This document shows, piece by piece, positions 6,906 through 52,100 of a stretch of 64,000 bases of DNA; the stretch's first letter is position 1, and the number at the start of each line of letters is the position of its first letter. The stretch covers positions 371,046 through 435,045 of the forward strand of contig VIIQ02000724.1 of NCBI GenBank assembly GCA_007449985.2, read 5' to 3'. This DNA comes from Desmodesmus armatus. Its lineage: Eukaryota; Chlorophyta; Chlorophyceae; Sphaeropleales; Scenedesmaceae. Below the pieces are notes generated by a model. That model made no database searches, had not been told where the DNA came from, and saw only the letters and a program-made list of their open reading frames with translations. The position numbers and the translations under genes are program-made.

Positions 6906-7668
6906 ATCACTTTCCAATGGCTAGTTCAAGGCTTGTGTGGGTGCAAAATCAGGTGTCCCACAGCACCACATGTCTCGCCTCCAGTCAAGTGCTTGCTGTA
7001 CAACTGCAAGCCTTGGCAACTGCAGCCATTATGCCACAATGCCGCTGTTTGGTGCTGGGACTGGAGCTCCTGAGCAGACCATGCCCCTGTCCCAACTGGC
7101 ACCGGTGCCACTTGGCACTGGCAGTGTGTCTTTGCACAGGGAAACCCTCTCAATTTGGTTGGCTTTGTTAACAAACCTTGTATCCTGTGATTTTACGGGT
7201 TTCAAGGAAAAACAAGCACCACAGTCCATCAAGACCCCAAGGTCTCAGGAGGCCTGAACTGTGACAGTGCTGTTGAGACCCAACGAGGCTGCATTGCTCA
7301 GTCGCTACGCCAGTAACATCCCAAGGCTACTTCAACTTACTCCCTTCTTCACACCGGATCCAGAGCGAAGCTGTGCAGCAGTGTTTGAAATTGTTTGAAG
7401 TCCTGCTTCGCATCCCTGCTCAACAGGAGATTTTCAGGCCCGCTGGAGGATCCACACGTCTACTGTTCGCTTTGTGAAGGCATAGCTCCGCCCAATCGCT
7501 GCTGGCTGCAGACATCTGATGCCTGCCCGCCATCCCACCCTCGTGGCTCAAGCGAGAGCACGCAGCTGATATTCAGGTTTTTGTAGAGCTTCCATCAACT
7601 AAACACTACACAGCGTCCCTTGGGCAAGAACCTCTGCACTGGCGGGTTGCTGCTGCCTCGGACCGCAG

Positions 7669-10086: not shown

Positions 10087-10124
<38 letters not shown>

Positions 10125-13100: not shown

Positions 13101-13515
13101 GCTCCTGCCTCCTGGCTCCGCACGCAGCGTGTCACTGCAGCAAGCCCCCTCGCCGGACGGCAGCTATACTGACCTCAGCAACAGCAGCAGCATGCCAGAG
13201 CTCATGGAGTCCCTGCCCGGCCTGCTGCACATCAGCAGCTACATGAGCTGCCCTGCAGCACGAGCACGGCTTGAGTACGCTGCGCACACAGCTGCTGGCA
13301 GCAATGGCAGCGCTGCCGGGCTGGGGCGCTTCTGTAGGGTGGCTTCACAGCTGCTGCAGGAGCAGTACAGCAGGGACGAGGTGGTGCTGATTGACCAGGG
13401 GCTGCCTATGGAAGCATTCATCGAGTCCCTGCAGCAGGAGCTGACCTCTGCCGTGCAGCGTGCACTGCTACTGGCAGAAATCATCAGCAAAGGCCGGGAG
13501 CTGCTGTTGCAGTGA
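7669..13515 (+). CDS. Large Ala/Ser-rich protein with about nine internal ~97-residue repeats; function unknown
   Basis: An uninterrupted frame of 1948 codons, far too long for chance even in GC-rich DNA. I do not recognise the family. Residues 1-210 look foldable (mixed composition, with motifs such as TYHYTPAEVQG and LLDSYTIIGFLKHLPNGF). Residues about 210-620 are Ser/Ala/Pro low complexity with a poly-Ala/Gly run. Residues about 623-1511 hold about nine degenerate repeats. Residues about 1578-1720 contain two segments starting TWE (TWEQVGPGLHAV and TWELLLEQL, 58 residues apart), each followed by Ala/Lys-rich stretches that could form helices. Residues about 1723-1948 again look globular and end in EIISKGRELLLQ. 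The protein is rich in Arg and Lys between the repeats. No transmembrane segment or signal peptide is evident. The first ATG of the frame is taken as start; an upstream exon cannot be excluded. A TGTAA signal lies about 620 bases after the stop. Confidence 0.72.
9537..12200 (+). repeat. Coding repeat block: about nine imperfect ~290-bp units
   Basis: Units start near 9537, 9828, 10143, 10429, 10720, 11178, 11463, 11760 and 12051. Each translates to a Ser-rich head with a GRLQ-like motif, a SAAAGA-like segment, an SSLQKxxS segment, TAAPxSKGLP, and a tail RAAGAASAAAAA ending in GSVSxM/L. Unit 5 is longer because its tail is copied about three times. Spacing of 286-315 bp is a multiple of three in effect, so expansion has kept frame. 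Confidence 0.8.
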
Positions 13516-15194: not shown

Positions 15195-18100
15195 TCATGG
15201 CTCTTCTGCCTTCCCGCTTTCATGCGGCCCCTGCTTCTGTTGCCGCTGCTGCTGTTCCTGCTGCTCTGGCGGGGGACGCCAGGTCATGGCACGAGGCAGC
15301 TGCTTCGGCCTGCTACTGCTGCTGCCAGCACCCCCACTTGGCCTGTGCACATGGTGCTGCTGGCTCGCACGTCCAATGCTGCTGCTGCCCCCGCTACTGA
15401 TGGCTGCCATCGCTGATGCCAATCTGCCCTGCGCTGAACCTGCACCCGCTGCGGCAGCAGCTGCTGCCACCAACGTGCTCCCCTGCCTCCCTTCTGCTGC
15501 GTCCCTGCTGTGCTGGGCCCCCTCCTGCCCCTCATCATCTGGCCCAGCCTGCATCGCCTTGAGGCTAAGCTGCACAAAACCCTTACTGTCGCGCCCCTTG
15601 CACACAACATCGAACTCCTGCCCTTCCGAGATGACGTCCCGCACTTCGCGGATCTTCTCATGGCTGAGTTCACTGATGTGCAGCATCGCAGGCATGCCGT
15701 TGGGCAGAGTGACGTAAGCGCCAAAGTCAACGACCTTCAAAACGCGAACGCGGTATACTTCGCCCTTGACGACACCGCGGCCCTCGACCTCTTGGATTGC
15801 GGCCAAAGCGTGCTGGTAGCGCATCTGCGGAGTTGGGGTTAAAAAAGGCGCGAGATGGGGCAGAGCGGGGCAGATCGTTGTGAGGACCGGGAAGTGAGCA
15901 GAGGACGAACTCCCACGTGGAGCATGCAAGGGGTGTGCACATGCTATGCGCATTGGCGTCGGCATCACCACATTGTGCAGCTGGGACAGCTCCACACCCA
16001 GGGAAGCTCTATGCGAGGATGAACCAACACAGTGTACTGCATATGCGGACGGGTGCCGCCTTGTCTTTGCAGCTGCAGCTGACCAGCCAGGCAACACCCA
16101 GACAATGGGCGGGACCGTTGTTGTGCACAACAACAGTCTACCGCATTGTCTGGTCTGTTTCCTGGCTGGCCTGCTACAGCTGCAAAGACAACGCGGCCTT
16201 GAAGGTTTAGCTGTGCACAGCTGTGCACAGCTGTCCACGCGGCTCTTCTGCAAGTCCTGGGGCATCAGTAGATGCGGCTTTCAGAGGCTGCACCGCTGTT
16301 GTAGTTTGAGCACCGCGGGGATGCTCAAACTACAACAACGGTGCAACCTCTGGAAGCCACATCCACTGATGCCCCCCTTCGAGCTAGGGGTTCTTGAGGT
16401 GGCAGTACCACTTGAACGACATGTACTTCCTGGGGTGCAGCAACAACTGCAGCGGTGCAGCCACCGGGTGCCGCATCAAGTGGTATGACCGTGTTGGGCA
16501 CAGTGTACTGCACTGCTACTAGCCTCCTTAGCAATAGCGCTATCCCTCTGCTAGCATCACCATCCTTACACGTGTTCCAGCCAAGTTCATTGCGCATGCA
16601 GCAAACCGACCTTGGTGTAAGACAAGCAAGACACCACCAGGCGACCAGTGGCCTAGTCCACTAGAGAGCTTGGGCCAGTTATGCTAGCAGAGTGACATAT
16701 TCTGTGTGTATGCAGGAGGTTTACACACCTGCATTGGTGCATAGGCATTAATGGTGCCTGTGTCATCTGAGCATGTTAGCCAGTGTGGCCTGCTTACCAA
16801 TAGCGCTGTCGCTCTGCTAGCAGAGTGACATATTATATGACACTGTGCGCGTGCAGGAATTGCACCCACCTGCGTTGGCGCGTAGACGTTGATGGTGCCT
16901 GTGTCGTCCACAATGAGTGAGGCCCCACAGCCCTCCTCTAGCTCAGTGAGTGTTGAGCCCTGGGGTCCTATCAGGCGGGGCACCAGCTCCTTCATGATCT
17001 GGGTGCTGCCAAACTGAGCCAGATCAAGGGGGGAGTGGCCTGAAGGGGGGGGGGGGGTGAAAGAGGCAGAGGCAGGGTGTCAGCGTAACAAGCAGGGGCT
17101 TGTTGCAGCGGTGGGATGTGCAACTGGTGGAAAATGAAGGCGCCGGCGGTGGCACAAGTGACATCTGCATTGTCTTGCCCGCCCACCCCTTACCCGGCCC
17201 ACCCATCCACCTCTCCTGATTTACCCCCCCCCCCCCACCCTGAACATGTCTCCTTCAGCTCCATTGTCTCCCACAACAACCACACTCACCTGATGTGAAA
17301 GTCTGCAGTCACGGTGCTCCCTCCATTGCTGCCAACAGCTTGGCTCGCGCTTCAGCAGCACCCCACTCAACCCCCCTCCTCCTGCCACCCCCCCCCCCAA
17401 AAACTCAAGGTGAAGGTCTGCCCCCCCCCCCCCCCCTGCTGCCAGCAGTCTGGCTCTTGCCTCAGCAGCCCCCCCTCCCCCCCCCCTCTGTCCCTGGCCG
17501 ATCACAAATACGAACATCAATACCAATATTGCAGGGGTTGACCCTGCACACTCACTTGATGCAAATGTCTGCAGCGCACCCTCCATTGCTGCCAGCAGCT
17601 TAGCTCGTGCCTCAGCAGCAGGGAGCAGTGCAGCCTCTAGCAGGTGCAGGTCAATGCCAGGGAGCTTGGTGTCCAGCTGAACAGCAGTGATGCCGCCAGC
17701 TGTGCCAGCAACCTGCGGGTAACAGACCGTGCAGCATATCAGGCACACAGCCTCAGTGCAATAAAGGCTACACTATTGACAGTAAGGCTGAACGAAAGCA
17801 ATGCCATGTGCTGTGTGGCAACAGTTGCAGGTTTAAGCAACACAGGTTGACGCCACAACAGGAGAATGCAAGCATGTGACTATTGCAACAGGAAGCAATG
17901 CACAGATGTTTGGGAGATAGGAGAATGCAGGGGGGTCCTGCAGTGAGCCCTGTCACCAGGCCCCACCACGCCCCCTGCCGTACTATGATACCCGTTTGAT
18001 CTAGGTGTCACTGTGAGTGGGGGCCGCCGGGATAACCCCAGCAGCAGCAACAGAGCCATGAGGGACCTCACAAGGGAGGGGCTGCACCCTGATAAGCAGT

Positions 18101-21100
18101 GACACCAAACACACCCAATGAACCAATGTCCTGCATGACTCCTACAGCGCACACATACTTGCAGTGGGGGGTGGTCCCCCAGGTGTCCCTCTGTGCCCCT
18201 CACCCCTTTGAATACGTCTAGCACCAACGAGGGAGGGCTCCACCCAGATAAGCAGTGACACCACACACTCCTATCCAATTGCCAACTTCCTGCAGGATTC
18301 CCGCAACACGTCCTGCTACAATGCAGTACTACTGCACCTAGTAGGGGGGTGCACCCCCACATGGACAGTCCACCCCCCCAGGTGTTTGTGCCCTCTATGC
18401 CCCTCTATTCCTCAAGCACCTGAAAGATTGTGCCTCAACTCTCATCACAAGCCTGTACCCCACACTGCATCTGTGTACTGTGTACTGCCTACATAAGCAC
18501 ATTGTCCCAGACCTGTGCAAGCACATCTGATCTTTCTTCGCACCCCACCTGTCCAGCACAGGCTGCCAGCCCCGAATCATCCGGTATCAACAGTCAAAAC
18601 CAAGCATACCTTGAAGTCCAGGTCCCCCAGGTGGTCCTCTATGCCCCCCCCCCACCCCAGCAACCCATGTGCACCAAATTCTCCCTCTCCTGCACATCCC
18701 TGCATCTGGACCTCAAAACAAGACGCCCCCCCCCCCCCCCCCGCGCCAACCCATGTGCACTCCACTCTCCCCCGTCCTTGAACACTCCACCCCCCCCCCC
18801 TCAAAACACACACACACACACGCACACCCCACGTTCTCTGTCTCAGCCTGGACGCACAGAGCAGCGGTCTACCCCCACCTTGAAGTCCATGTCCCCCAGG
18901 TGGTCCTCTATGCCCTGGATGTCAGTCAGCAGCAGCGCACCACCATAGCTGCTGCTCAACAGACCACCACTGCTGGTGCTGCTGCTGGCGGCAGCATAAT
19001 TGTCATCATCACTGCTGCCGCTGCTGCTGCTGCTGCTGTCACTGCTAGACCCCTCGCTATCACTGCTGCTACTGCTGCTGCTAGCTTCTGCACTGCTAGG
19101 AAAGCTTTCTGCCCCATCCACCTGCTGCTGCTGCTGGGACAGTGACATGACAGTTGCCACAAAACTGCTGTAGCTGCTAGGGTCAATGTACCCCACAGAA
19201 GAAACACTGGGCTCTGTTACCCCCTGCCCCCCACCCTGCTGCTGCTGACCGGCAGCAGCAGCAGCAGCCGTCGCTGCTGCACCAGCATCACTAGCACCAG
19301 CGTCACCAGCAGCGTCACCAGCAACGTCAACAGCAGCAGCACCAGCAGCAGTGCCTGTGCCCTGCTGAGTCAGGTGTGGTGTGCCCAGCTGTGGGGGTGT
19401 CTGTGTGACAAGTCCCACCGATATGCCTGCTGCCAGTCCTGCAGTGGGCACCCCCGCTGTCCTGAGTGCGAGTGACGCTGCACACACTGCTGCCATGCTG
19501 CTGCTGCCGCTGCTGCTGAGTGTGTCTGCTGTCACCCGCACACAGAAGGGGAACTCATCCACACTGGGCATCACTCCTGGAGGCACGGGGAGGAGGAAAC
19601 ATTGAGTGAGAACAGGATGGCACATAGGGTGAGAGAGAATGGAACAAAAGATTGAGAAACACAGGGTGGATTCTGTTAGTAGACGAGCTATTGCTGATTC
19701 GCTCACAAACATGGAGCCTCCCGGTGTTCTGTGTGGCTCTCCAATGAACACGGGCAGAGTGAGAGGAGGCCAGACACACACACACACACACAGGTGGTAG
19801 GTGAAGCTTGTGAGAGCTGACACATATGCAAGCTTCAGAACTGTGGCAACACACCACACTCGTTGGCCCCTCTGCAACACATATACACACACATGAACAA
19901 GGGTGCCGATACTCACAGAAATACACGCACGCCGCAGAATGTCCACCAGGCATCATAAACCACTGATGGGGGGCTGTAGTATAACCCCACCGTAGGGTTT
20001 CAGCCGGCTCAACCCTGGTAGGCAATGTGTGACACCCACACCCCGCTCTGTACAAATTTCTCACCTGCCACTCCAGCGCGTGCCAGGTTGCCGTGCCCCA
20101 CCTCCCTCCTGTTTGGTGGCCCCGTCTTGCCCACCTCCCCCACACTGAAGGGAGGGAAGCTGTAGTGCAGGTGCAGCGGGCTGCGCCCACGGCGACGCCA
20201 CAGACCCTCCTCCTGTGTTAGGGATGAGGAAGGGAAAGAGTGAGTGACAGAGTGAGTGACAGGGGGGCAGAGAGGACAGGCAATTGACTGGTTGATGTCA
20301 TCACTTCCTTTTTCTTTTTTTCTTTTTGTTTGTGTTGTTGAAGCAGACGCTGCAGGATAGCTAAGAAGATGATGAAAAGCATCAGAACTGCACAACAACG
20401 GGACCTTGACGATTGACGAAGGTCTCACACAAAACAACTGTGACCTGTGACAGCTAAAAGAACTGCCACTCCCATAGAGTCCTATCCAAATGGTGATGAA
20501 AATTAAACTTGACTGCTCCAGGGGCAGCAGTTTTGCAGTTTATGCGAGGGCACCACCACACTTGAACCACCACGATAACTCATCAAGCAGGTATGAAGGG
20601 TGCTCCACGCCCCAAACCACCTGCACCTGAACCCTCACACACAGGGTTCTGCTATGCCGGTTGCTTGATGAAGGTACACTCCACAAAGCTGTGTGTGTAT
20701 GTAACCTGAATGCACCCCATCAGGTCATACGTAATGACCTGTCCTGCAAGAACGCTCAATGAGGGCTCAAGATGCAACAATTGCGCCTCCACACCCACAC
20801 TAACACACCCACGCTCCCCCTGTGTGGGCCCTCCCTCCCTGCTCACCGATGCACCGTGTCGTGCAAGCATGCTCAACCAAGGCTCAGGCTGCATTGTTCG
20901 TGCCCCCACAGACACACCAACACACCCACGCTCCCTCTGTGTGCCGCCCCCCTCCCTGCTCACGGAGCCACGTCGGTGTCGTGTCCCACTGTAGCTGCAG
21001 CCAGGCACTGCGTCTCACCCCTACTGAACAGGGCGGAGCCGTGGACATTGCGGGGCAGGGGCCCAGCCTCACAGCTGATAGGCCGCAGCTCGTTGGTGAG

Positions 21101-36549: not shown

Positions 36550-39500
36550 TCACGGCTCATAGTTGAGGCTGGTTGCCAGCCAGCGCTCCGCCTCCTTGCC
36601 GTCCATCTTCTTGCGCAGCGCATAGTCGGTCACTTGCTCCTGCGTGATCTTGCCCACGGCAAAGTAGCTGCTGCACTTGCCCGCAAAGTACAGGCCGCTC
36701 ACACTGGCCGCCGGCATCATGGCCAGGGACTCGGTGAGGGTGATGCCCGTCTGCGGCTCGATGTCCAGCAGCTCCCACATGGTCAGCTTCTCCGTGTGGT
36801 CAGGCTGGCTGGGGTAGCCCGGCGCGGGGCGGATACCCTATGAGTAGGACACGCAGCGCCAGGCAGGGACAGGCAGAGAGAAAATGTGGGCTGTGGTCAA
36901 ACCTCCCACTGGATGCTTTTTTTTTGCCAGTCAAAAACCAGAAGGCCTGCTCATGAAGGCGTGAGATGGGCTTGTGATTGTCTCCTCAATTCACGCCCCT
37001 GCAGCACCCCTACTGACATAGTGTGGTGCGACACGCGATGCTGCCCACACTGCTGAACTGTGCACACTGCGGAACTAACGAATCGCAAACCAACCCCCCT
37101 GGTACAGAAGCAGTGGCGGCCAAACCTACCTGGTACTTGACCTTGAGCATGTCGTCCACACTCATGTTCTCGTCAGGCGCGTAGGCCCACAGCTCGCGGC
37201 GCACCAGCTCATGCAGCTTCTCAGCAAAGGCCTCCGCCAGCCTGTCGGCCAGTGCCTCTGCCATGATGTAGCTGTAGTCGTCGCCTGCAGTCAGCACAAT
37301 CAAGCAACATGACAGGAGGAGCAAGAGTGTGCTGTCAGCGACTCGCCGTGTGCACATGCCATGTATGCATTCATGCTGTCTGGCCCTGTGCAAATGCAAC
37401 TGCCAAACCAATGTGAACTACTCCGTACATGGTCACGCCTCAGAACAATTGACGCAATACACACCTATGTCTCTCTACAAACACAACCGCATGTTGCAAT
37501 GGCGGCGGCCTGACAAAAGCAACACCAAGCAAGCTAGCGTCCAGCAACACCCCTGTGCAAGCCTGCGATGCCACACAGTCCACCAGCACCCACCTGCTTC
37601 CTTGAAGCCTGCCACCACCTTCTCCAGGCCGTGTCCCGCTGAACAGGCAAAGGCGCCCACGTAGTCAGCCACGCCGCTGCCCTTGGGCGCGATGAAGTCA
37701 CTGACACACATGTAGGGCTCGTCATTGTCCTTCTCAGCCTGCTGCCTCAGCCCGTAGAACTTGCCGATGGCGTTCTGGCGCTCCTCATCGGTGTACACCT
37801 GCACACAAAGCAGCCACACAGGATGAGCGTCAAAACAGCAACAACACAGCACCAAACCTTCTTGATGCAGACAGTGCATGCAGCCCACAACTGCAGCCGC
37901 ATGTCCTGTTCATACAGACATACAAGCAAAGCCACCAGGCACGCCTGTTTGCGAACGGCCTTTGCTGCTGTGCCGTGCCAGCTGCTGGCTCACCTCAACA
38001 TCGTCGCCGACAGAGTTGGCTGGGTAGAAGCCCACGATGCCGTTGAGCTCCACGCGCTTGTTCTTCACAAAGTCCGCCAGCATCTCCTGCGCCTCTGCAA
38101 ACAGCTTCTTGGCCTCTTCGCCCACTGTGGCGTCGTTGAAGATCTTGGGGTAGCCACGGTTGGGGTAGCGGCCACGCAGCTGCCACACCTGTGGGCATCC
38201 AGGTCATAGACGGGGGCAGAGCAGGCAGCAGCATGGTCGCGAGTGAACAATTGCAACTGTACAAAACCACTTGCAAAGGTGGGAGGCCTGCAAGTGAGCA
38301 CCACCAGTTGAGCAGGCTAGGGGCACAAGTTGACTGCTGGTGTGACATCAACTGCCTTCGTTTCCTGTACTTCCAGCCAACAGGTGGACTGCCAAACAGG
38401 GTGTTCCTCTCCCCAGCTGCAAGCTGGCCAGACAGCTGTCAGCAGCCCCCAATCCCACCAAAGGCATGTCTGAAGCTCACCTGGAAGAAGGGGTTCCAGT
38501 CGATGTACTCCACAACGTCCTCAATGGGGAAGCCCCTGAACGCCTTGGTGCCAATGATCTTGGGCTTGATGGGCTTGTTGATGGGGTCCTTCCAGTCAAC
38601 CACAAAGGCCTTGGCCTGCGCCTGGGCCAGTGTGAGGTACCTGGGGGAGGGACGCACGGCAGCGGCACAGGCAGGGCAGATGCCTCAGCACACTATAATG
38701 AGCACCATAAGCCTACCGTTCTGCCCCGACAGCATATTGCCCAGCAAAGATCAGCACCGCGTTGGTTACAGGACATGCTGTTCAAAAGAGTGTAGGACCA
38801 TGCCAAATTCCTACAGCAGCTGCACAGTCACAGTGAACGTTTGATTGTAGCAAGTGTGTGAATGAAAGGTGCAAGGAAACCCAGCCACTTGAACCCTCCC
38901 CTGCAGACCACCAGGACTCACTTCCTGTCCTCCAGGCCAGCATAGAACTCCTCCCTCAGCTCAGCATACTGCTCCGCGACCTCATCCACAAACTCCTGCC
39001 GCTGCTTCTGGTTCTTGTCCACCAGCGCCTGCACCACCGGCACGCTGCGGCTGGCGTCCAGCACGTGCACCACAGGCCCGCTGAACACGGGGCTGATCTT
39101 GACGGCCGTGTGCATCTTGCTGGTGGTGGCGCCGCCGATGAGCAGGGGAGTCTTGATGCCGCGCTCCTCCATCTTCTTCGCCACAGTGACCATCTCATCC
39201 AGTGAGGGCGTGATGAGGCCTGACAGGCCGATGACGTCGGCCTTGACCTCCACAGCAGTGTCCAGGATCTTCTCCCAGGGCGTCATCACGCCGAGGTCGA
39301 TCACCTGTCAAAAACCAGCAGCAGCAGCCGCAGCAGCAGCAGCATTAGCAGGACCGAGACAGGCTCATGGGACTGTGGGTTACTGAGTGGGCGCTTTTTG
39401 GGCTAATGAGGATGGCCATTCCGCCCAGGTGGCAACGTATCATAATGATTGCAGAAAAAGGGCCCATGATACATGTTGAAGGCAGACAAGCCACATGAGC

Positions 39501-40992
39501 TTTCCACAGAGAGTTATGTATGGTCAAACTCCGACCTGCACTTCAGCCTCTAGCCGCCCTAGCCCCCAGCTGGAATAACCCGCCAGCATCAGCACCAGTG
39601 GCACACCTTGAAGTTGTTGCAGCCCAGCACAACGGCCACGATGTTCTTGCCGATGTCGTGCACGTCACCCTTGACCGTCGCGATCACAAACACGCCTGCG
39701 TTGCTCTCCTCCTCCATGTTGCCTCCCGCCAGCCGCTTCTCCTCCTCGATGAAGGGGATGAGGTGGGCCACAGCACGCTTCATCACACGCGCAGACTTGA
39801 TGACCTGTGAGCGGCACGTGACGCAGCGCAGGATCGGATGGCATTGTCAGCAACGGACTGCATAGGTGGGCTTTTGTTGGACTGCAGACGGCTTTCAACC
39901 TGCCCTGGCAACCATACTCAAACAACAACCCCGCTGCAGAGCATCCAGACAGCAGACACAAGAAAGGCCCTGGAACAGGAGGGCGCTCCTGTCATGAACC
40001 CAGGCATGATGATGCATACCTGTGGCAGGAACATCTTGCCAGCACCGAAGAGGTCACCAACGACGTTCATGCCGTCCATCAGCGGGCCCTCAATGACGTT
40101 CAGCGGGCGAGCATACTTCCCGCTGGCACGAGCCTCCTCTGTGTCCCCCACAATGAACTCATCAATGCCCTTGACCAGTGCATGCTCAATGCGCTTCTCA
40201 GGGGGCAGTGAGCGCCAGGAGTCAGCCGCCTTCTTGCCTGCACCGCCTGCTGCTGCAGGACCGCCCTTCTTCACAACCGCTGTGGGCTTGCACTTGGGGT
40301 CCAGGGTGGCTGCATACTCCAGCATGCGCTCAGTGGCGTTCTCACACCGGTTGAGCAGCACGTCCTCCACATACTCCAGCAGCTCCTTGTCGATCTTGGT
40401 GTAGTCATCCTCAATAACCTGCAGCAGCGGAGGCAGGCATCAGCAACGGCAACTTGAGAACACAGCAAGACCCCAGAGTATTCTTACAGCAGCACAACAG
40501 CCCTTGCTGCACCACGCACAGTTGCCGCTGCATCGTCCATCCTCACGTGGCAGGTCCCTAATCTAGAAGAATAGCCAAATTGCCCAATGCTGAGGCAGAA
40601 ACACATGTTGCACACAGGTAGCAGATGTACACCAGACCAAAACACTGCTCTGTAGCTAGCTAGCTGCTGGAATGAACACCAGAGCACATGTTCCATATCA
40701 AGACAGTAGCCACTCCACGTCCTCACCAGTCCAGCCGCACTGCGTGCACCTGCTGCAGTGTTCACCCACCTGTGCTGCATTCACAATGCCCATATCCATG
40801 CCCTGCAGGCAGGCGTGGTGCAGGAAGGCGCTGTGGAAGGCACGGCGCACCGCCTCGTTGCCACGGAAGGAGAAGGCAATGTTGGACACGCCGCCGCTGA
40901 TCTTGCAGCCTGGGCACACACGCTTGATCTCCCGGGTAGCGCGGAAGAAGTCCACAGCGTAGTTGTTGTGCTCGGCCATGCCTGTGCCGACT

Positions 40993-41023
<31 letters not shown>

Positions 41024-44000
41024 GCGGCTCAAAGCCGACCTCCTCCACCAGCATGCGGTAGGCGCGCTGGCACATGCTGACCTGCAACAGTGCACAACAG
41101 CGGTTCACGTGCTGAAAAGAAGGTTGCAAGGGATTGCGCTAATATTATGGAAATATTGTGCAGACTCATCCGATGTCAGTGACATCACAACTATTTTGAA
41201 TTGGTGCACCGATTACTGATTGCTACTGGCAACTGGCCATAGCTTTTGGCAAGACTTGCATCACACAACAAAGCGCCTGTGGCAGCTCCTGTACAGGTTG
41301 CTTTGCACAGCACTGTTGCAAGTCTGGCATGTAGTGCCTGCCGCCATGAAGCTGGCGTGTACTTCAGCATCCCAGAAGGATGGTTGTCAGCTGCATGTGA
41401 TGCCAGAGCTCCTCACCACCAGCAGTAACTGCAACAATGGACTGCTGCATGGTGGCACGACAACCCAGCAACAGTGGTAGCTGGCAAGAGGCAGTCCTAT
41501 CTATGATCTAACACACAGCAAGCCTTGCATACAGCAGCACACTGCCTGCCTCACCTTGTCCTCAAAGCCGGCTGCCTGCCCCGTCTCGTCAAACGCCATC
41601 ACCACCACTGCAGCGCCGTGGTTCTTGACGATGGTGGCCTGCTCCCTGAACTTGTCCTCGCCCTCCTTCAGGCTGATGCTGTTGACAATGCACTTGCCCT
41701 GGGAGCACTTGAGGCCAGCCTCCACGATGTGGAACTTGCTGCTGTCAATCATGAAGGGCACACGACTGATCTCGGGGTCTGCAGCAAGGCACGGGCAGGC
41801 AGGGCATGAGCACAGGACAGGACGGGCTCAGTTGCGAGTGGCTGATAGCAAGGCTGATTGCATGTGCTAACCACAACAAGTTAGGGAACAACCACTGTGC
41901 AGGACGCTGACAGCCTTCAAATATCCTGACCTGGCTGCACGCTACCAACCATTGCCAAGGACAGACACATGTATCACCACAACCCCCGCCAGCAAGTCAA
42001 CACACCTGAGACACACAGGTTGACAAACTTGGTCATGGCGGCCACGCCGTCGATCAGGCCGTCGTCCATGTTGATGTCCAGCACATGTGCGCCCTGCTGC
42101 ACCTGCTTCAGCGCGATGGCGAGTGCCTTGTCGTAGTCGTTGTTGACGATGGCCTTCTTGAACAGCGCAGAGCCAGCAACGTTGCAGCGCTCGCCCAGGT
42201 TGAGGAACGTGGAGCGCATGTTGGACGCATTGGGCTGGTAGTTGAGGGGCTCCAGGCCGCTGATGCGCATCAGGGGCTCCACATCATGCACTGGCCGGGG
42301 AGGGTAGGCGGAGGCCATCTTGGCAATGGAGGCGATGTGCTCAGGTGTGGAGCCGCAGCAGCCGCCGATGGCGTTCACCAGATTCTCCTCGCAGAAGGGC
42401 CTGATCTCCTCAGCCATCTCATCACCCTTCTGGTCGTAGCCACCCATGGCATTGGGCAGGCCGGCGTTGGGGTAGCAGAACACAAAGCAGTCGGCGCAGG
42501 CGCTCAGGTTGGCGATGTACTTCTTCATGTCGGTGGCTCCCAGGGCGCAGTTGAGGCCCACCGCCAGGGGCTTGGCGTGGCTGATGCTGTTCCAGAAGGC
42601 CTCGTTGGTCTGGCCAGACAGGGTGCGACCGCTGTTGTCCACAATGGTGCCGCTGACGAACACGGGGATGCGCACGCCGTTGTCAGCAAAGAACTTCTCC
42701 AGCGCGTACACGGCAGCCTTGGCGTTCAGGGTGTCAAAGATGGTCTCCACCAGGAACATGTCCACGCCACCAGCATACAGGCCCTCCAGCTGCTGGTAGT
42801 AGGCGTCCACAACCTCGTCGTAGGTGATGCCCCTGAACGCAGGGTTCTCCACAGACGGGGACACACTCAGGGTCTTGTTGGTGGGGCCCACAGCGCCAGC
42901 AACAAACTTCAGGGACCCAGGGTTGGCGGCCATGTAGTCAGCAGTGGCCTTCTTGGCCAGCTCAGCAGCAGACTTGTTGATCAGGAACACCTGGTGGCAC
43001 AGCAGGGCCAGGCCAGTGCAGGAGAAGCAGAAGGTGGAGGGTTAGCAGGCATTCAGAACACCAGGACGAGCCCTCTACTTGAACCAACGCCAATAAACCA
43101 TATAAGGCAGTACAAAGCGGCGACAGCAAGCAGCGCTGAATGATGTATCAATACTGTAGCAACAAGGCTAATGCTGCAGCAGCTGCATTTGCTGCTGTCA
43201 GACTGCATGCTGCCAATCAGGCCATAGCAGAGCACCAAGCAACTGCAGGAAAGCACACATTCACTGCACCATCCTGCCCTGGCACTGCTTGCAGTGTTGC
43301 GCACCTCCTCGGGTGCCTGCAGCTCGTAGTCTGCCTGGCTGATGGTGGTGCCGTTGAAGGTGTTGGTCTCAATGATGTCTGCGCCGCCCACCAGGTACTG
43401 CATGTGGATGTCGTAGATCACGTCTGGCCGCGTGATGACCAAAATGTCGTTGTTGCCCTTCAGCTCGTGGCCGTGGTTGGCGTAGCGCTCACCCCTGAAG
43501 TCCTCCTCCGTCAGCTTGAAGCGCTGGATCATGGTACCCATGGCGCCATCGATGAAGATGATGCGCTCCTTCATCAGCCGCGTCAGCTGGTCGAATGCAG
43601 GGGAGCACTCCAGGGGGTCCTCCTTTCGCTTGTACACAGGCACAGGTGATAGGACTGCTGGGGGCGCACACGGATCAAAGCCAGCCGGGATGGGGTTGAG
43701 CTTGGGCGTGATCTTGGGGCCTGCTGATGCTTCCGCCTCACCCAGCTTGCGCACTGCTGTGGGGTGGCACTTGGGCTCCAGGGTGGCTGCGTAGTCCAGC
43801 ATGCGCTCGGTGGCATCCTCGCGCCTGTTGAGCAGGACATCCTCAACGTACACCAGCAGCTCCTTGTCAAGCTTGCTGTACTCGTCCTCAAGCACCTAAA
43901 AACAAACAAAAAGGGCGATAGGCAGTCACAGTTGAGTATCATGTTGTGTCATGTTCCCAGGCACGATGATACCAGTGCTGTGCAGGCGAGGGTACACCAC

Positions 44001-44779
44001 AAGCCTATCAGTTGCTTTTCTTTGGCACTTGGATTGTGTGCGGATGACAATCCACTTCCACCTAGGATATGAAAAGAGCCAAGCAGAGTCAACTCTGCTG
44101 GCGTCAGCAACAGTCAAACAGACCCCAAAAGACAGCACGTGACGCCCACTGCTGCATAGACAACATTTGGCACTACAGCTACAATCTTGGCTACACATGA
44201 TAGCTATCACCGGTGCTGATCTTTTCCTCCCCCCCCTTTTTTCCTTTTTTCTGGTTGGCTTGAAAGCAATTTTAGGCTGCATCGGACACTGTGCTTGCCC
44301 AGCCGCTGAGCAGCTTACAATCTTACAGTCTTAGACATAGGGAAGTGTGGGCACTGGCTTCAGCCTGGCAGGCTGAAGTCAGAACCCACACTTCCCTATG
44401 TCTAAGACTGTAAGATAGGCAGGCTGCTGCAGGAGTTGCAAGCAACAACACAGCCATGTCAATCACACTGTGTGACTGCATGCAAATGAGGTCTAAGATG
44501 ACCTTGTCATGCACACTTGACAGCCCCTGAACCCCTCAGTGAGAAGCTTCACCCACCTGGGCTGCGTTCACAATGCCCATGTCCATGCCAGCCAAGCAAG
44601 CGTGGTGCAGGAAGGCGCTGTGGAAACCGCGGCGCACCGCCTCGTTGCCGCGGAAGGAGAAGGCGATATTAGACACGCCACCGCTGATCTTGCTGCCAGG
44701 GCACACACGTTTAATCTCTGTTGTGGCCTTGAAGAAGTCCACAGCGTAGTTGTTGTGCTCTGCCATGCCTGTGCCAATA

Positions 44780-44810
<31 letters not shown>

Positions 44811-47450
44811 GGGGCTCAAAGCCCACCTCCTCCACCAGGATGCGGTAAGCGCGCTGGCACATGCGCACCTGCAGGCCGCAATGCAGACAACATAGCAGGT
44901 GTGCAGACAGAGGGAGGAGCCTGTTGATGTGAGATTTGCGACTGGCGAGATACACAGTCCATGTCAGTGAGTGAGACGACGCCGGCATGTGCAGAGCATA
45001 TGCCAGCAGATCGTCTGTTGCAATATGTTTGGCACATCTGTCACAGCAGCGATGTTAACAGAGACGACGCCGGCTTGTGCAGAGCATGTGCCAGCCGATC
45101 GTCTGTTACAAGATGTCATGGCACATCTGTCACAGCAGCGATGTCAACATCGCTTGTAACATACGATCTGCTAGCATATGCTCTGCACAAGTCGGCTGTC
45201 TCACTAACAGACATGGACCGTTCCATGGGGTGACACAATCCAGTGGACAACGGGCAGCTGTCAGTAAGAGAGCCAAAATCCCTCACCTTGTCCTCAAAGC
45301 CGGCTGCCTGCCCCGTCTCGTCAAAGGCCATCACCACCACTGCAGCGCCGTGGTTCTTGACGATGGTGGCCTGCTCCCTGAACTTGTCCTCACCCTCCTT
45401 CAGGCTGATGCTGTTGACGATGCACTTGCCCTGGGAGCACTTGAGGCCAGCCTCCACGATGTGGAACTTGCTGCTGTCAATCATGAAGGGCACGCGGCTG
45501 ATCTCAGGGTCTGCAGCAAGGCACGGGCAGGCAGGGCATGAGCACAGGAGGAGGAAGGACATGGTCAGTGGCAGGTGGCTGATAGCAAGGCTGATTGCAT
45601 GTGCTAAGCACACCAAGGGAACAACCACTGTGCAGGACGCTCACAGCCTTCAAACATCCTGGCCTGGCTGCACGCTACAGCCACTACTCAGGACAGGAAG
45701 CATATAGAGCAAGGGTCAGGAGGCTGCAGCATCGCGACCCCGCCAGCAAGTCAACACACCCGAGACACACAGGTTGACGAACTTGGTCATGGCGGCCACG
45801 CCGTCAATCAGGCCGTCGTCCATGTTGATGTCCAGCACATGCGCGCCCTGCTGCACCTGCTTCAGCGCGATGGCGAGTGCCTTGTCGTAGTCGTTGTTGA
45901 TGATGGCCTTCTTGAACAGCGCAGAGCCAGCAACATTGCAGCGCTCGCCCAGGTTGAGGAACGTGGAGCGCATGTTGGACGCATTGGGCTGGTAGTTGAG
46001 GGGCTCCAGGCCGCTGATGCGCATCAGGGGCTCCACATCATGCACTGGCCGGGGAGGGTAGGCGGAGGCCATCTTGGCAATGGAGGCGATGTGCTCAGGT
46101 GTGGAGCCGCAGCAGCCGCCGATGGCGTTCACCAGGTTCTCCTCGCAGAAGGGCCTGATCTCCTCAGCCATCTCAGCACCCTTCTGGTCGTAGCCACCCA
46201 TGGCGTTGGGCAGGCCGGCATTGGGGTAGCAGAACACAAAGCAGTCAGCGCAGGCGCTCAGGTTGGCGATGTACTTCTTCATGTCGGTGGCTCCCAGCGC
46301 GCAGTTGAGGCCCACCGCCAGGGGCTTGGCGTGGCTGATGCTGTTCCAGAAGGCCTCGTTGGTCTGGCCGGACAGGGTGCGGCCGCTGTTGTCCACGATG
46401 GTGCCGCTGATGAACACGGGGATGCGCACGCCGTTGTCAGCAAAGAACTTCTCCAGCGCGTACACGGCAGCCTTGGCGTTCAGGGTGTCAAAGATGGTCT
46501 CCACCAGGAACATGTCCACGCCACCAGCATACAGGCCCTCCAGCTGCTGGTAGTAGGCGTCCACAACCTCGTCGTAGGTGATGCCCCTGAACGCAGGGTT
46601 CTCCACAGACGGGGACACACTCAGGGTCTTGTTGGTGGGGCCCACAGCGCCAGCAACAAACTTCAGGGACCCTGGGTTGGCGGCCATGTAGTCAGCGGTG
46701 GCCTTCTTGGCCAGCTCAGCAGCAGATTTGTTGATCAGGAACACCTGGTGGCACAGCAGGGCAGAGCCATTGCACGAGGAGCAGAAAGCAGGAGAGTCGG
46801 CACGGAAGCAACCCACCAGAAGCGTTGGAAGCCAAACTGACTTTAACCCCAACCATAGGAGCAGCGCAGAATGCCCCATGCAAGCAGTGCTGCATGCATG
46901 CACTGTGACTTTAGCAATGAGCCTGATACTGCAGTAGTAGCAGCATGTGCCACTGTCAGGTTGTTAGCGAATGCAGCAGGCATAGCAAGGAGCAACAAGC
47001 AACTGCAGGAAAGCACAGGAACTGCATGCACTGCCCCGGCACTGCCTTGCGCACCTCCTCGGGTGCCTGCAGCTCATAGTCTGCCTGGCTGATGGTGGTG
47101 CCGTTGAAGGTGTTGGTCTCAATGATGTCTGCGCCGCCCACCAGGTACTGCATGTGGATGTCGTAGATCACGTCTGGCCGCGTGATGACCAAGATGTCGT
47201 TGTTGCCCTTCAGCTCGTGGCCGTGGTTGGCGTAGCGCTCGCCCCTGAAATCCTCCTCCGTCAGCTTGAAGCGCTGGATCATGGTGCCCATGGCGCCATC
47301 GATGAAGATGATGCGCTCCTTCATCAGCCGCGTCAGCTGGTCAAACGCAGCTGTGCGCTTGATTGGGTCGACCCACTGCTTGTAACCCTCAGGCGCTGGG
47401 GCTGCGGCGCGGCTGCAGGACACACAGAGATGGACAGACACAAGCAGCAC
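36550..47450 (-). CDS. METH: Cobalamin-dependent methionine synthase with duplicated Hcy and folate modules
   Basis: Exons in order: 47055-47412 (47450 if the local ATG is the start), 45760-46744, 45287-45510, 44557-44868, 43305-43895, 42006-42990, 41555-41778, 40770-41081, 40020-40418, 39607-39804, 38922-39304, 38481-38640, 37994-38188, 37594-37798, 37130-37284, 36550-36837. All phases match, giving about 2000 aa; the usual length is about 1230-1265. Domain order is Hcy, THF, start of cap, Hcy, THF, cap, cobalamin, AdoMet activation. Both Hcy copies have the zinc ligands (GLNCALG and [13 protein letters not shown]); both THF copies have [22 protein letters not shown] and [14 protein letters not shown]. 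The single cobalamin domain has [13 protein letters not shown] with the B12-binding His; the activation domain has RPAPGYP. Exon 43305-43895 is chimeric: it starts as cap ([17 protein letters not shown]) and, through a ~45-residue linker, becomes the Hcy N-terminus ([17 protein letters not shown]). The enzyme moves methyl from 5-methyl-tetrahydrofolate to homocysteine via B12. Three further upstream exons may belong to it. Confidence 0.9.
44321..44415. repeat. 95-nt near-perfect hairpin in a METH intron (miRNA-precursor-like or MITE)
   Basis: 31-base perfect arms: 44321-44351, starting TCTTACAGTCTTAGACATAG, and its exact reverse complement at 44385-44415. An inner pair GGCTTCAGCCTG / CAGGCTGAAGTC continues the stem at 44356-44380 with one mismatch and a one-base loop. 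Confidence 0.9.
44956..45222. mobile_element. Short TIR element (MITE-like) in a METH intron
   Basis: Imperfect terminal inverted repeats of about 28 bases (GTCCATGTCAGTGAGTGAGA at the left; the right end is its reverse complement GTCTCACTAACAGACATGGAC). Inside, an ~88-base unit (GAGACGACGCCGGC...GCAGAGCAT...GATCGTCTGTT...CACATCTGTCACAGCAGCGA) occurs twice directly and once inverted. The equivalent intron of the other METH copy lacks it. No obvious target-site duplication and no coding capacity. Confidence 0.65.
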
Positions 47451-47996: not shown

Positions 47997-48799
47997 TCAT
48001 CCCGGCACTGCCACACACCTTGGGATAATGGGCACAGGATCGCCAACCTCAGCTGCTGGGACCGCATCTGACTCCTGCTTTCGCACTGCGCGAACTGCTG
48101 CAGCATCCTCAGAAGGAAGCACCTCTGCTGACTTGGCTGAAGTCGCCACTGCTGCAGCGCCTGCAGCTGCTGCCACACCAGCAACGCCAGCACCAGCTGC
48201 CAGGGCAGCTGAGGCACCGCTGCTTGCGTGCTGACTGGCTGCAGTGTCATCCTCACGTGCTGCTTGCACCTTTGCTTGTAGGGGAGCCGCTGATGCTGCT
48301 GGTGGTGCAGGGCTGCTGGCACCTGTTGTAGGCCAAAGACAGTGCAGCAGCATTGTTAGGGTAGTGAAGGGTTTGCTATGCAGGTCAGGGCAACCTGCTT
48401 GGCAGAGGGATGTGCAGCTGTTCAGCAGGGTCCTTTTACTCAAGTCATCTGACCTCGGTATGGCATGTCCTTTGACACCCAGCCGCTCACCTGTGCTGCG
48501 TCTTGGAGAGCGCCTAGACAGGACCACAAAACCGACCTGCAGGACAGCAGCAGCATTGTCAGTGCACCTGGCTCCGCAATTGACTGCACATCCAGACAAG
48601 TCTGTGATTCCTGTATGATACTTACCACTGCAAGGAGCAGCGCGGGGACCAACACAGGGGCCAGCTGCACCAGCAAGAACTTCAGCACTGGGATGGCAGC
48701 CAGCACCACCACAGGGGACAGCAGCACTGCCACAACGGCCACGCCAGCTGCCAGCAGGGGATTTTCGACAGCGAACGACTTCATCTGGGACAGATCCAT
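47997..48799 (-). CDS. Membrane-hairpin protein of unknown function, or the 5' exons of METH
   Basis: Exons 48626-48799, 48491-48536 and 48019-48322 join in phase. Translation starts MDLSQMKSFAVENPLLAAG, followed by about 50 very hydrophobic residues with Pro (SPVVVLAAIPVLKFLL and APVLVPALLLAVVGFVVL), then a basic SRRSPRRS, then an Ala-rich segment ending GDPVPIIP. Two readings are possible. If the last exon reads on, it ends at a stop at 47997 as a stand-alone protein of about 180 aa. If it splices at the GT at 48018, its phase matches the first METH exon at 47412, giving a METH of 2165 aa with a membrane-anchored N-terminus. I see no TGTAA signal on the minus strand between 47997 and 47412, which slightly favours the second reading. 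An alternative start lies 11 codons upstream (48832). Confidence 0.55.
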
Positions 48800-49165: not shown

Positions 49166-52100
49166 TCACTCTGCCCCCTTCTTCTCCTTTCGCTTCAAAG
49201 ACCGCAGCAGGTTCTTCTTCTGCGCCTTGGTCAGCGGCGTGTCCACAGGCACAGCCGCCAACCGGCCCGCTGGCTGCGGCTGCGGCTCCTTCCGCTTCTT
49301 CTGCTGCCCCTGCTGGTCGTCACCTGCTCTGTGCTTCTTGTGCTTGTGCTGCGTGCCATCACCGGCAGCACTGCCCCGCTCCCCGTCCTGCTGCGCAGGC
49401 TTCAGCGTCAGCTTGGCATATGAGGCCAAGCGGGCAGCCTGCTTCTCCTCTGCCGTCATCTCACTGAGGGGCTTCTGCTGCTGCTTCTGTTTATGCTGCT
49501 GGCCATGTGGCTTGCCATGAGCCTGCTCAAAGCGCCGCTTGTAGCCAGCATGCTGCTGCTGCCTCTGCTTGGCCGGCCGCTGCTGCTGCTGGCCATTCTG
49601 CTGCCGGCCCGCATGCTCCGCAGCCTCCTGCTGCCGCTGCTCCTGCTGCTGCTGCCGCCGCTGCAGGCGCTCAACATCCTTGTGCTTCTGCCGTTGCCGC
49701 TTGTGCTGCCGCATGGCCTCCGCAGCTGCTGCCTCGCCCTTGATGCGCTGTAGGGCTTTGTAGTTTGGCCGCAGCCGCTTGCTGTCATCCCGGTAGGGTG
49801 CTGCAACCATCTTCATGCCTATGATCTGATTGAGCTCCTTGTCTGGCAGGTTCAGGATGTCACCCACGGACAGCCCAAAGTTCTCGGCTGGCACCTGCAC
49901 AACAGCGGCATTGGCGGCAGCAACGGCACAACAGGGCCATGTCTTAGGAAGGGCAAGACAATCAGGCAATACTAACCATGTGGCAGGTTTGTGCACGAAA
50001 CCTCACTGGTGTGACAGCACAGCACAGAGCAGCTAACAGGGGCATAAACCATCGACTCCTTTGCAGACATCACACCAGCACAGTTCACTATGCACAGGAT
50101 AGCACCCCCCGGCTGTAAGCACCACAGCAACTGCCTACTAGGTAGTCCCAACTGTCCAAGGGGCCTGTGCAACTCGCCACCAACCTGTCCGTTGCCCACC
50201 AGGCGCCAACTCAACCCACCTGTCGGTACTTGAACCTGCATGGTATGCCCCCAATGTTGTCCTCACAGTCCAGCTTGTAGTACTCCTCAAGCTTGCGCTG
50301 CAGCTGGCTACGCTGCTCAGCCCTGGCTGCTGCTGCAGCTGCCTTCTCCTCTTCTGTGGCACCATCATCCTCTTCACCCTCCCCTTCATCTTCATCCCCG
50401 CTGTCTGACCCCTGCTGCTGCTGCAGCTGCTGGTGCAGGACTGCAAAGCCCCCTGCTGCCTCGTCGTCTCCCAGGGCTGTGGCTGCTGCAGGTTTTAGGA
50501 CATCGTCCTCTGCTGCTAGCTCCTCATCTGCATCGCCAAACAGCTCATCATGCTCGTCATCACCCTGTGACAGCAGGCAGACAGCAGCCACGTTTCATGC
50601 AGCACACACAGCAGGCAAGCAGGGGGCACAGAGCACTCAGGATTAGAATTGAGCAATGTCGAAACTGAAAGCTGGCCAGGGGTTGGGTGCGCCATCAGGA
50701 CAAGGCTTGGGTGTGCCTAGAATCAAGGCACTGGCAGCTGACAGCCAGTCCAGGTTGCATGGGCTGTTGCAGTTGACACACTGTTTTGATGCATGCATGT
50801 ACACATACTGCCACACAAGCAAAGGCGCTCACAAGAAGCCTATGAGCCAAAGCCAGCCCACACAACCCAGCCAGCCCACATCCAAGCATGCTGCCACTGC
50901 AACAGCTTACACCCCTGCTGCTGCACCCACCTCATAGTAGCTATCATCAAAGGCAGCTGCCATCCTCTTGTCGTAGGCATCAGGGTCAAAGTCACCCTCC
51001 AGCAGCTCATCAAGCAGGTTAGCCAGGCCACCAGACTTGGCGAGGGCAGCTTCGTCATCCTCGTCGATGCCATGGCCGGCCTTCTTGGACTTGATGCCAG
51101 CCTCCTGCTGAATGCGGCCAAACCTACACAGTACAAGCACCACCAGGTATGGATTGTGAGTTTTGATAGCGGGTGTTGGTGGCTGCAGGAGGACTTGTGC
51201 AACCACAGAGGCGCATGCTGCATGCTGCGATCTGATCTTGCAGAGGCTACGCACAACACCCCTCCAAGCACACCCCTTCAGACTTGGCCATAGGAGGTAT
51301 GCTGACTACTTCACTACCACTATCAGCATCACTTTCACCAATCACACTCAAGCCTGTAAAAGACACAAAACAAGACGAACAAGAAAACAGCGCACTGCCC
51401 AGCACAGCAGCCATTGCCAACTCACATGTCGTGGATCTCCTGCTTCTTGAGGTTCTTTAGGCGCCTGATCTCCGCCTCGCGCGCCTCCTTCTCCGCCTGC
51501 TTGCGCGCGGCCTTGGAATCACGCTGCCGCTTGCGGCGTTCATCTGTGCGGCGGACGCTATCCTCAATCACACGAGGGAAGCTCTGGATGCGGTGGGAGC
51601 CTGGCTCCTCGTACCTGCAGCAACAAGGGAACACACCACAAAAGCAGGGCAGAAGAAATGCACAACAATGTCAAGCCAACATCAAGTTGTACTGGTGCCA
51701 TCAGCCTGTGTGAGAGGTGCGGGAGCCGCACGCACCACTGGCTACACAGACAGAGATGTGAACAGGAAGGGATGTGAACAGGGCGCAGCTGCTGCTGTTT
51801 GGTGCGCCAACACAATTGTGGACGAGCCTGTGTGCAAGACTTTGGTGCACATACGAGCCCATGCAAGCACGGGCTCACAAGAAAGCTCACTCGACTGCAC
51901 TTCCCGCCCCTAAATTGGCTTGTGAAGAAGCGTCTTGCAGCAGCCTGGAGCGTGACAGGCCCTGTGGCCCCAACTGGGCCTGCCACACAGCCTTGCCAGC
52001 ACAACACAGCATCACCTCCTGCCCTTATGGAAATCACTCAGTCACCCACCGTCCCCACACTACTTGCAAACACCGTCCTGCAGGAGCCTAGTGCACGAAC

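What the first reader, a model, noticed from the sequence alone, without database searches (positions are those of the whole stretch)
36550..47450. Double-headed methionine synthase: in-frame tandem duplication of the Hcy and folate modules
Sixteen exons join in perfect phase to give Hcy-THF-partial cap-Hcy-THF-cap-B12-activation. The key evidence is exon 43305-43895, a single open exon (197 codons, phase 0 at both ends) whose first part is the beginning of the cap domain and whose last part is the N-terminus of the Hcy domain. This is not two adjacent genes: there is no stop, no start signal and no gap between them. All zinc ligands and folate-site motifs are kept in both copies, so one B12 domain could be served by two methyl-donor and two acceptor modules. 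I know of no described METH with this order.
Basis: partly seen in the sequence, partly recalled or inferred. Interest (0 to 1): 0.92.

Follow-up and report, generated by a model that had tools for sequence, protein, structure and literature searches.

The report
Multi-headed B12-dependent methionine synthase gene
This algal gene encodes a vitamin-B12 enzyme that carries its substrate-binding half twice in one chain, and the same multi-headed design turns up in many green algae and some other algae, where textbooks show only one head.

Summary
Sixteen exons (window 47412-36550, minus strand) join in phase through GT-AG introns into one frame, Hcy-Fol-linker-Hcy-Fol-Cap-Cob-Act. Three upstream exons extend it to 19 exons and 2165 aa with a hydrophobic N-terminus. 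No second METH locus was found in the 116-Mb assembly.

Two corrections. The "partial cap" is the folate-domain tail; the chimeric exon hits only PF02574. And the architecture is not unique: of 257 METH sequences examined (256 fetched, plus the window), 157 have at least two Hcy and two Fol domains. They come from green algae (2-4 heads), diatoms, thraustochytrids and pelagophytes. 0 of 80 prokaryotic MetH loci do.

Heads cluster by protein in 60 of 63 multi-headed representatives, yet tails differ by position and the green linker is shared. This suggests an ancient duplication kept uniform by gene conversion. Zinc-site cysteines and five folate contacts are invariant in 217 of 217 heads. Likely function (inferred): several donor/acceptor modules serve one cobalamin. 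One earlier remark on a doubled METH exists, in a diatom (PMC4523565).

The parts
48626..48799 (-). exon N1: in-frame ATG and hydrophobic N-terminal segment with prolines (MDLSQMKSFAVENPLLAAGVAVVAVLLSP...LAPVLVPALLLAV)
   Evidence: phase-compatible GT donor; 23 of 35 assessable non-stramenopile representatives (window included) have a comparable hydrophobic N-terminus
48491..48536 (-). exon N2
   Evidence: phase 0 in, phase 1 out
48019..48322 (-). exon N3: Ala-rich spacer up to the pre-head motif
   Evidence: phase 1 in, phase 2 out
47055..47412 (-). exon A1: pre-head motif and start of Hcy domain A
45760..46744 (-). exon A2: rest of Hcy domain A (Zn-site Cys) and start of Fol domain A
45287..45510 (-). 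exon A3: Fol domain A
44557..44868 (-). exon A4: Fol domain A
43305..43895 (-). chimeric exon AB: Fol-A tail (43895-43773), inter-head linker (43772-43599), start of Hcy domain B (43598-43305)
42006..42990 (-). exon B2: rest of Hcy domain B (Zn-site Cys) and start of Fol domain B
41555..41778 (-). exon B3: Fol domain B
40770..41081 (-). exon B4: Fol domain B
40020..40418 (-). exon B5: Fol-B tail (NRCEN type), linker to the cap, most of the cap domain
39607..39804 (-). exon B6: end of cap, start of cobalamin domain (GDVHDIGKN)
38922..39304 (-). exon B7: cobalamin domain
38481..38640 (-). exon B8: start of activation domain
37994..38188 (-). exon B9: activation domain
37594..37798 (-). exon B10: activation domain
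37130..37284 (-). exon B11: activation domain
36550..36837 (-). exon B12: end of activation domain and stop codon

Best explanation
The locus is one gene for a double-headed cobalamin-dependent methionine synthase. Each head is a complete Hcy-Fol double barrel (methyl acceptor plus methyl donor site); both are tethered in series to a single Cap-Cob-Act half. The head duplication is old: tails and linkers suggest that in green algae it precedes the split of chlorophytes from the two early streptophyte lineages sampled. Since then intragenic gene conversion has kept the head bodies nearly identical, while head number drifts between one and four. The single cobalamin domain most likely visits whichever head has bound homocysteine or methyl-THF, so more substrate modules work per cobalamin, which would pay where B12 is scarce. 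Shown here: the gene structure, the distribution among the sequences fetched, intact sites, heads alike within proteins, position-specific tails. Inferred: gene conversion as the cause, that both heads are catalytically used, that they share one cobalamin, and that economy of B12 is the benefit.
For: In-phase gene model, no second METH locus found. Relatives: 108 of 257 sequences (window included) have >=2 Hcy, >=2 Fol, Cob and Act in one chain; 49 more have >=2 of both but lack Cob or Act. Named examples: Chlorella vulgaris (2 heads); C. sorokiniana, Volvox carteri, Myrmecia (3); Bryopsis (4, one Fol shortened). Some full-length copies nearly fill their contigs, e.g. 1955 aa with a longest contig of 6084 bases (P0067), which leaves almost no room for splice-model errors. 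One double-headed record comes from an MMETSP transcriptome (P0205). Three Zn-site Cys and five folate residues are invariant in 217 of 217 heads. Heads are monophyletic within the protein in 60 of 63; support could be read for 54 of these 60 and is >=95 in 52. Green tails: first head R.D in 22 of 31 two-headed and 10 of 12 three-headed representatives; last head C.N in 25 of 31 and 12 of 12. Window: synonymously differing codons 29 of 500 in exons 1-3 against 33 of 152 in exons 4-5, p 9e-8. Human MTR: N-half rigid, flexible linker to the C-half, halves seen only as separate particles (PMC13376404, passages).
Against: No transcript, protein or enzyme data for this organism. Nothing here shows that the N-terminal head can reach the cobalamin domain of its own chain. 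Heads could be kept alike by conversion even if only one is needed. Single-headed relatives exist in the same broad group (e.g. Chlorella variabilis P0090, Auxenochlorella P0119), so one head suffices there if those models are complete. The tail pattern has exceptions: the first tail is C.N in 8 of 31 two-headed green representatives, and no position-specific pattern is visible in the stramenopile-type set. R384 of the folate site is not kept in most heads. Representatives were picked at <90% identity of the last head, so the between-protein identities are capped by construction.
Confidence: 0.72

Rival explanations
1. Recent lineage-specific duplication in this alga only, with high A/B identity simply reflecting youth.
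For: Head parts of exons 1-3 are 97-98% identical between copies; the window heads are 96.9% identical in protein.
Against: The junction and linker motif are shared with many green algae; introns 3 and 4 are only 45-47% identical and exons 4-5 have dS 0.53-0.62; tail signatures are position-specific in most green representatives.
Confidence: 0.04
2. Two products from one locus: a long form and a single-headed METH made by splicing A1 directly to B2, or by starting inside the chimeric exon.
For: A1 ends and B2 starts in phase 0, so that splice would give a complete single-headed enzyme; an in-frame Met (MKERI) exists in both A1 and AB. Near-identical metagenome proteins of 1439 and 2144 aa, one 705-residue module apart, exist (P0097, P0047).
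Against: No stop separates the heads; relatives with almost no room for introns are double-headed; the conserved linker implies that it is translated. Promoters were not examined.
Confidence: 0.12
3. The extra head is dispensable baggage: conversion preserves it, but only the last head works with the cobalamin domain.
For: Head number varies from one to four among relatives; in most two-headed green representatives the cap-proximal C.N signature is on the last tail only.
Against: Zn-site Cys and five folate residues are intact in every head examined, also in proteins whose heads have diverged to 79-88% (P0011, P0014, P0015), which conversion alone does not explain.
Confidence: 0.2
4. Assembly artefact (haplotype or repeat wrongly placed in tandem).
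For: Tandem repeats are a common source of such errors; head number may be miscounted in some genomes.
Against: Copies differ in exons and strongly in introns, with long inverted repeats in introns A3 and A4 and none comparable in B3 and B4; exon AB is a fusion whose linker is found in other species; no further copy was found in the assembly.
Confidence: 0.02

Closest known systems
Cobalamin-dependent methionine synthase MetH / human MTR (PDB 9SSP, 4CCZ, 8G3H, 8SSC)
   Same: Same domains; the head of a modelled relative, P0121, is 59% identical to human 9SSP over 647 columns; Zn-site Cys and most folate contacts kept; single Cap-Cob-Act half.
   Different: Full-length solved chains are 1150-1265 aa, the size of one head plus C-half; 80 of 80 prokaryotic METH frames examined have at most one Hcy domain. 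Here two heads in series with a 58-aa linker, plus a hydrophobic N-terminal extension.
Green-algal METH proteins in databases (e.g. Chlorella vulgaris P0018, Volvox carteri P0009, Chlamydomonas incerta P0004, Bryopsis P0001)
   Same: Same order and a homologous linker; two to four heads; heads alike within each protein.
   Different: Deposited as methionine synthase or hypothetical protein; I found no text on the repeated heads in nine library searches. Head number differs.
Phaeodactylum tricornutum METH (Phatr2 23399, PMC4523565)
   Same: Reported there as a doubled MetH plus pterin-binding domain, encoded in a supposed in-frame intron (section 11 read).
   Different: Diatom-type proteins in my set have a different, longer linker (about 105 aa), so the duplication may be independent. 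I did not fetch the P. tricornutum protein itself.
mtrA duplication in methanogens kept alike by gene conversion (PMC4632066; title and start of abstract seen in a listing)
   Same: Long-lasting gene conversion between duplicates in a corrinoid methyltransferase system.
   Different: Separate gene copies, not tandem modules in one chain.

Membership tests
Cobalamin-dependent methionine synthase (METH) | Hcy domain (PF02574) with three Zn-binding Cys | tested here: met
   Both heads match; C260, C323, C324 equivalents present in both. That these bind Zn is recalled.
Cobalamin-dependent methionine synthase (METH) | Folate domain (PF00809) with methyl-THF contacts | tested here: met
   Both heads match; N470, D537, N579, R585, R591 equivalents kept, R384 not (residues named in PMC13376404, passage).
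Cobalamin-dependent methionine synthase (METH) | Cap, cobalamin and activation domains | tested here: met
   Own HMM matches over 98-100% of each; PF02965 in four exons; GDVHDIGKN in the translation (meaning of the motif recalled).
Cobalamin-dependent methionine synthase (METH) | One Hcy-Fol half per chain, as in known structures | tested here: not met
   Two complete Hcy-Fol heads. I treat this as a variant, since all catalytic domains are present.
Multi-headed METH of green algae (as described here) | At least two Hcy-Fol heads joined by the conserved linker (..NPIPxGxDPLAPxxxLPPVPxYKxWxDPLxKSxAF) | tested here: met
   (motif read by eye from the listing)
Multi-headed METH of green algae (as described here) | Heads of one protein closer to each other than to other species | tested here: met
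   96.9% between the window heads against at most 85.7% from head A to any fetched relative; monophyletic in the tree
Multi-headed METH of green algae (as described here) | Both heads catalytically active on one cobalamin | not testable with these tools
   needs enzymology
Two adjacent genes | Stop, start or intergenic gap between copies | tested here: not met
   Exon AB is open across the junction

The most novel reading that the evidence does not exclude
Many green algae and several stramenopile lineages use a distinct class of multi-headed METH in which two to four near-identical Hcy-Fol heads, kept uniform by intragenic conversion, feed one cobalamin domain: a cofactor-sparing machine. In green algae it is also anchored to a membrane by an N-terminal hydrophobic hairpin. 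Head number would be an adjustable trait tied to B12 supply.
Probability: 0.35. Interest if true: 0.87.

Novelty: new variant of a known kind. Interest (0 to 1): 0.7.

Why it matters
METH decides whether an alga can use vitamin B12, and it is taught as an enzyme with one substrate-binding half. If multi-headed forms are common in green algae and diatoms, kinetic models, protein quantification (molecules of METH per B12) and heterologous expression need revision. The system also gives a clean test of how many substrate modules one swinging cofactor domain can serve. The heads are a striking case of modules inside one protein evolving in concert while their short tails keep position-specific identity.

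Tried and rejected
Rejected: two adjacent genes; assembly artefact; recent private duplication; 'partial cap' label (reasons in the report). Left open: one or several origins. By eye, the diatom-type and green linkers do not look homologous, and in both groups the linker's end resembles the sequence in front of that group's own first head, which favours separate duplications; but conversion could have overwritten older linkers.

Led nowhere: a genome-contig scan with exon B2 alone matched 65 stretches, none confirmed. A viral-contig scan with P0038 matched 2, none confirmed. P0073 was aligned as a modelling candidate but lacks parts of both heads, so P0121 was modelled instead. No Pfam match was found for the N-terminal segment of the window or of P0006, P0021, P0062, and a protein search found only the window's own copy in the genome. 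A paper search on concerted evolution of this enzyme returned none.

Limits: the five domain HMMs were built from the window protein and its own hits, so strongly diverged domains may be missed; a domain was counted at >60% profile coverage, >50%, >40% for prokaryotes. Each of three protein searches listed the best 120 of about 8000, so 157 of 257 is not a frequency in nature. The 80 prokaryotic loci are the best 80 of 588 confirmed; in 7 of them the METH frame showed no Hcy domain at that threshold. 14 of 257 sequences gave no full head and were dropped from head-based counts; the tree, tail and N-terminus counts use the 83 representatives only, not the 91 proteins added. In one search, 27 green and 4 stramenopile-type N-termini were not assessable. 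C. reinhardtii P0010 and Aureococcus P0220 look like damaged models.

Full report
What is there. The minus strand of window 48799-36550 encodes one gene. The first of these exons has no start codon ahead of the Hcy domain apart from a Met at its beginning (MKERI). Three more exons upstream (48799-48626, 48536-48491, 48322-48019) join with matching phases and begin with ATG, giving 19 exons, 2165 aa and 234.8 kDa. They encode a long hydrophobic stretch with internal prolines, then an Ala-rich spacer.

Domains. With HMMs built from the window and its relatives the parse is Hcy-Fol-Hcy-Fol-Cap-Cob-Act, every domain covered over 98-100%. Pfam agrees on the parts: PF02574 in four stretches of the gene, PF00809 in six, PF02965 in four. 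The chimeric exon 43895-43305 alone matches only PF02574. Its first 38 codons align with the last part of the human Hcy+folate structure 4CCZ, so they are the folate-domain tail.

Only copy found. In the 115.8-Mb assembly the activation domain was found only here. The Hcy domain was found here and in one other place, C24, probably a stand-alone methyltransferase (naming inferred); the pterin-binding domain also on C584. A DNA query over copy B finds itself, copy A and one short stretch in exon B5. A METE family (PF01717) matches in seven pieces on C2, so the alga may not depend on B12 (inference; the N-terminal METE domain was not tested).

Not unique. A search with the junction region (residues 600-880 of the 1990-aa model) against 5.8 billion proteins listed 120 relatives. 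Parsing these plus the window gave 49 complete double-headed proteins (window included), 10 complete triple-headed and one quadruple-headed (Bryopsis sp., 3361 aa, one Fol domain shortened). Named triple-headed ones include Chlorella sorokiniana, Chlamydomonas incerta, Volvox carteri, V. africanus, Myrmecia bisecta and Ostreobium quekettii; named double-headed ones include Chlorella vulgaris, Parachlorella kessleri and Pleodorina starrii. Two proteins known only by portal codes (Chlat1, Mesvir1; taken as the streptophytes Chlorokybus and Mesostigma) are double-headed too. Searches seeded with two distant hits added stramenopiles: diatoms (Nitzschia inconspicua, Epithemia), thraustochytrids (Hondaea; Mucochytrium, the latter from an MMETSP transcriptome) and a pelagophyte with three heads (Chrysophaeum taylorii) (group names recalled). 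The oomycetes and the raphidophyte Fibrocapsa in the same listing parse as single-headed. Over all 257 sequences 157 have at least two Hcy and two Fol domains; 108 of those also have both Cob and Act.

Not a gene-model error. Several metagenome proteins nearly fill their contigs: P0067 is 1955 aa with a longest contig of 6084 bases, P0070 1932 aa with 6068, P0074 1930 aa with 6200, so there is little room for introns. As a control, among the best 80 of 588 confirmed MetH loci in prokaryotic genomes none has two Hcy domains in one frame: 73 METH frames show one, 7 show none at the threshold used, and two loci have a second Hcy domain in a separate frame.

Active sites. The human MTR paper (PMC13376404, passages) names the folate contacts and two Hcy-site cysteines. 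In an alignment of 272 heads, 217 of them from proteins with two or more full heads, C260, C323, C324 and N470, D537, N579, R585, R591 are invariant in 217 of 217 (and in 55 of 55 single heads). R384 is not conserved in either class.

Concerted evolution. From 157 proteins of the first two searches (window included) with at least one full head I kept 83 representatives at 90% identity of the last head, 63 of them multi-headed. In a FastTree of 158 heads, rooted at the midpoint, the heads of one protein are monophyletic in 60 of 63 (exceptions P0011, P0015, P0067). For 54 of these 60 a support value could be read: median 100, minimum 74, at least 95 in 52. The last two heads of a protein are 98.0% identical at the median (minimum 85.8%), against 86.5% at the median for the best match in another representative; the latter is capped below 90% by how representatives were chosen. 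The first heads of P0011 and P0015 group with each other rather than with their own sisters, as expected if head positions are old.

Why old and not sixty recent events. Divergence between the last two heads is about 0.6-2.7% per 50-residue block up to residue 600, then 21% in the tail. In the green set the tail is mostly position-specific. At the two variable places of EDVLLNR-[C/R]-x-[N/D], the first head reads R.D in 22 of 31 two-headed representatives (C.N in 8, S.D in 1) and in 10 of 12 three-headed ones (C.N in 2). The last head reads C.N in 25 of 31 (C.D in 2, T.D in 2, R.D in 2) and 12 of 12; the middle head of three is C.N in 12 of 12. The two streptophytes show R.D then C.D. The stramenopile-type set shows no such pattern. 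Linkers of the green set share a motif with the window, in part even in Chlorokybus. In the window itself exons 1-3 have dS 0.07-0.15, exons 4 and 5 dS 0.53 and 0.62. Synonymously differing codons are 29 of 500 against 33 of 152, p 9e-8. Intron identity falls from 67 and 84% (first two) to 45 and 47%. This mosaic fits gene conversion over exons 1-3.

Origins. Diatom-type proteins have a linker of about 105 aa unlike the green one. In each group the linker's end resembles what precedes that group's first head. I read this as two or more origins, with moderate confidence.

How it may work. In human MTR the Hcy-Fol half is rigid and tied to the C-half by a flexible linker, and the halves appear as separate particles (PMC13376404, passages). 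An AlphaFold2 model of a relative with Hcy-Fol-linker-Hcy (P0121, 1057 aa) has mean pLDDT 79.8, pTM 0.68 and a linker core below 50. A head-sized part of it superposes on human 9SSP (TM 0.92 by target length). So the heads may be beads on a flexible chain. The simplest mechanism is that the single cobalamin domain samples all heads of its own chain, raising the chance of meeting a loaded donor or acceptor site. That this spares B12 is inference. Splicing A1 straight to B2 would keep the frame and give a complete single-headed enzyme (phases), so a shorter product cannot be excluded without RNA. Head number looks variable: P0097 (1439 aa) and P0047 (2144 aa) agree in 168 of 170 N-terminal and 599 of 600 C-terminal positions but differ by one 705-residue module. 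This may be real polymorphism or assembly collapse.

Literature. Nine searches of the held library gave one relevant statement: PMC4523565 (section 11 read) reports a doubled MetH/pterin domain in the P. tricornutum gene and asks for experimental proof. PMC11439496, a survey of B12 enzymes with 1666 strains, shows no mention of repeated heads in the passages I saw. Passages of PMC12538271 and PMC5765456 do not mention it. Most subscription-journal papers and all preprints are missing from the library, so an unseen report is possible.

Noticed in passing
window 48626-48799 (-) and N-termini of relatives P0003, P0006, P0021, P0031, P0062, P0066: Hydrophobic, proline-interrupted N-terminal segment (hairpin-like) on METH: 23 of 35 assessable non-stramenopile representatives (window included) reach a 19-residue mean hydropathy of 1.9 or more, 0 of 17 stramenopile-type ones. 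No Pfam match in the four tested. Suggests a membrane or lipid-droplet anchor; untested.
   Followed up: partly
P0075 (Mesvir1, taken as Mesostigma), pre-head region and residues 814-879: A glycogen-binding-like domain (PF16561, AMPK1_CBM, two matched stretches, one at 814-879 in the inter-head linker; similar sequence in front of the first head).
   Followed up: no
window 44320-44416 (intron A4) and 44954-45221 (intron A3): Strong inverted repeats (48-nt arms 94% complementary with 1 nt between; nested 43-44-nt arms) in introns of copy A, none comparable in introns B3 and B4; possibly foldback or MITE insertions.
   Followed up: no
P0097 and P0047 (near-identical metagenome proteins): Same protein with one and with two heads, one 705-aa module apart: head-number polymorphism or assembly collapse.
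   Followed up: no
P0129: A record named Sphagnum compactum carries a double-headed METH that groups with the stramenopile-type ones; contamination is likely.
   Followed up: no
window 7603-13512 (+): A 1970-codon open frame without any Pfam match at E 0.001.
   Followed up: no
window 15198-16280 (-), 18846-19952 (-), 49169-50002 (-): Neighbouring frames with an S1 RNA-binding match, a marginal RNase PH match just under its cut-off, and a KRI1 C-terminal match, i.e. probably ordinary RNA-processing genes.
   Followed up: no
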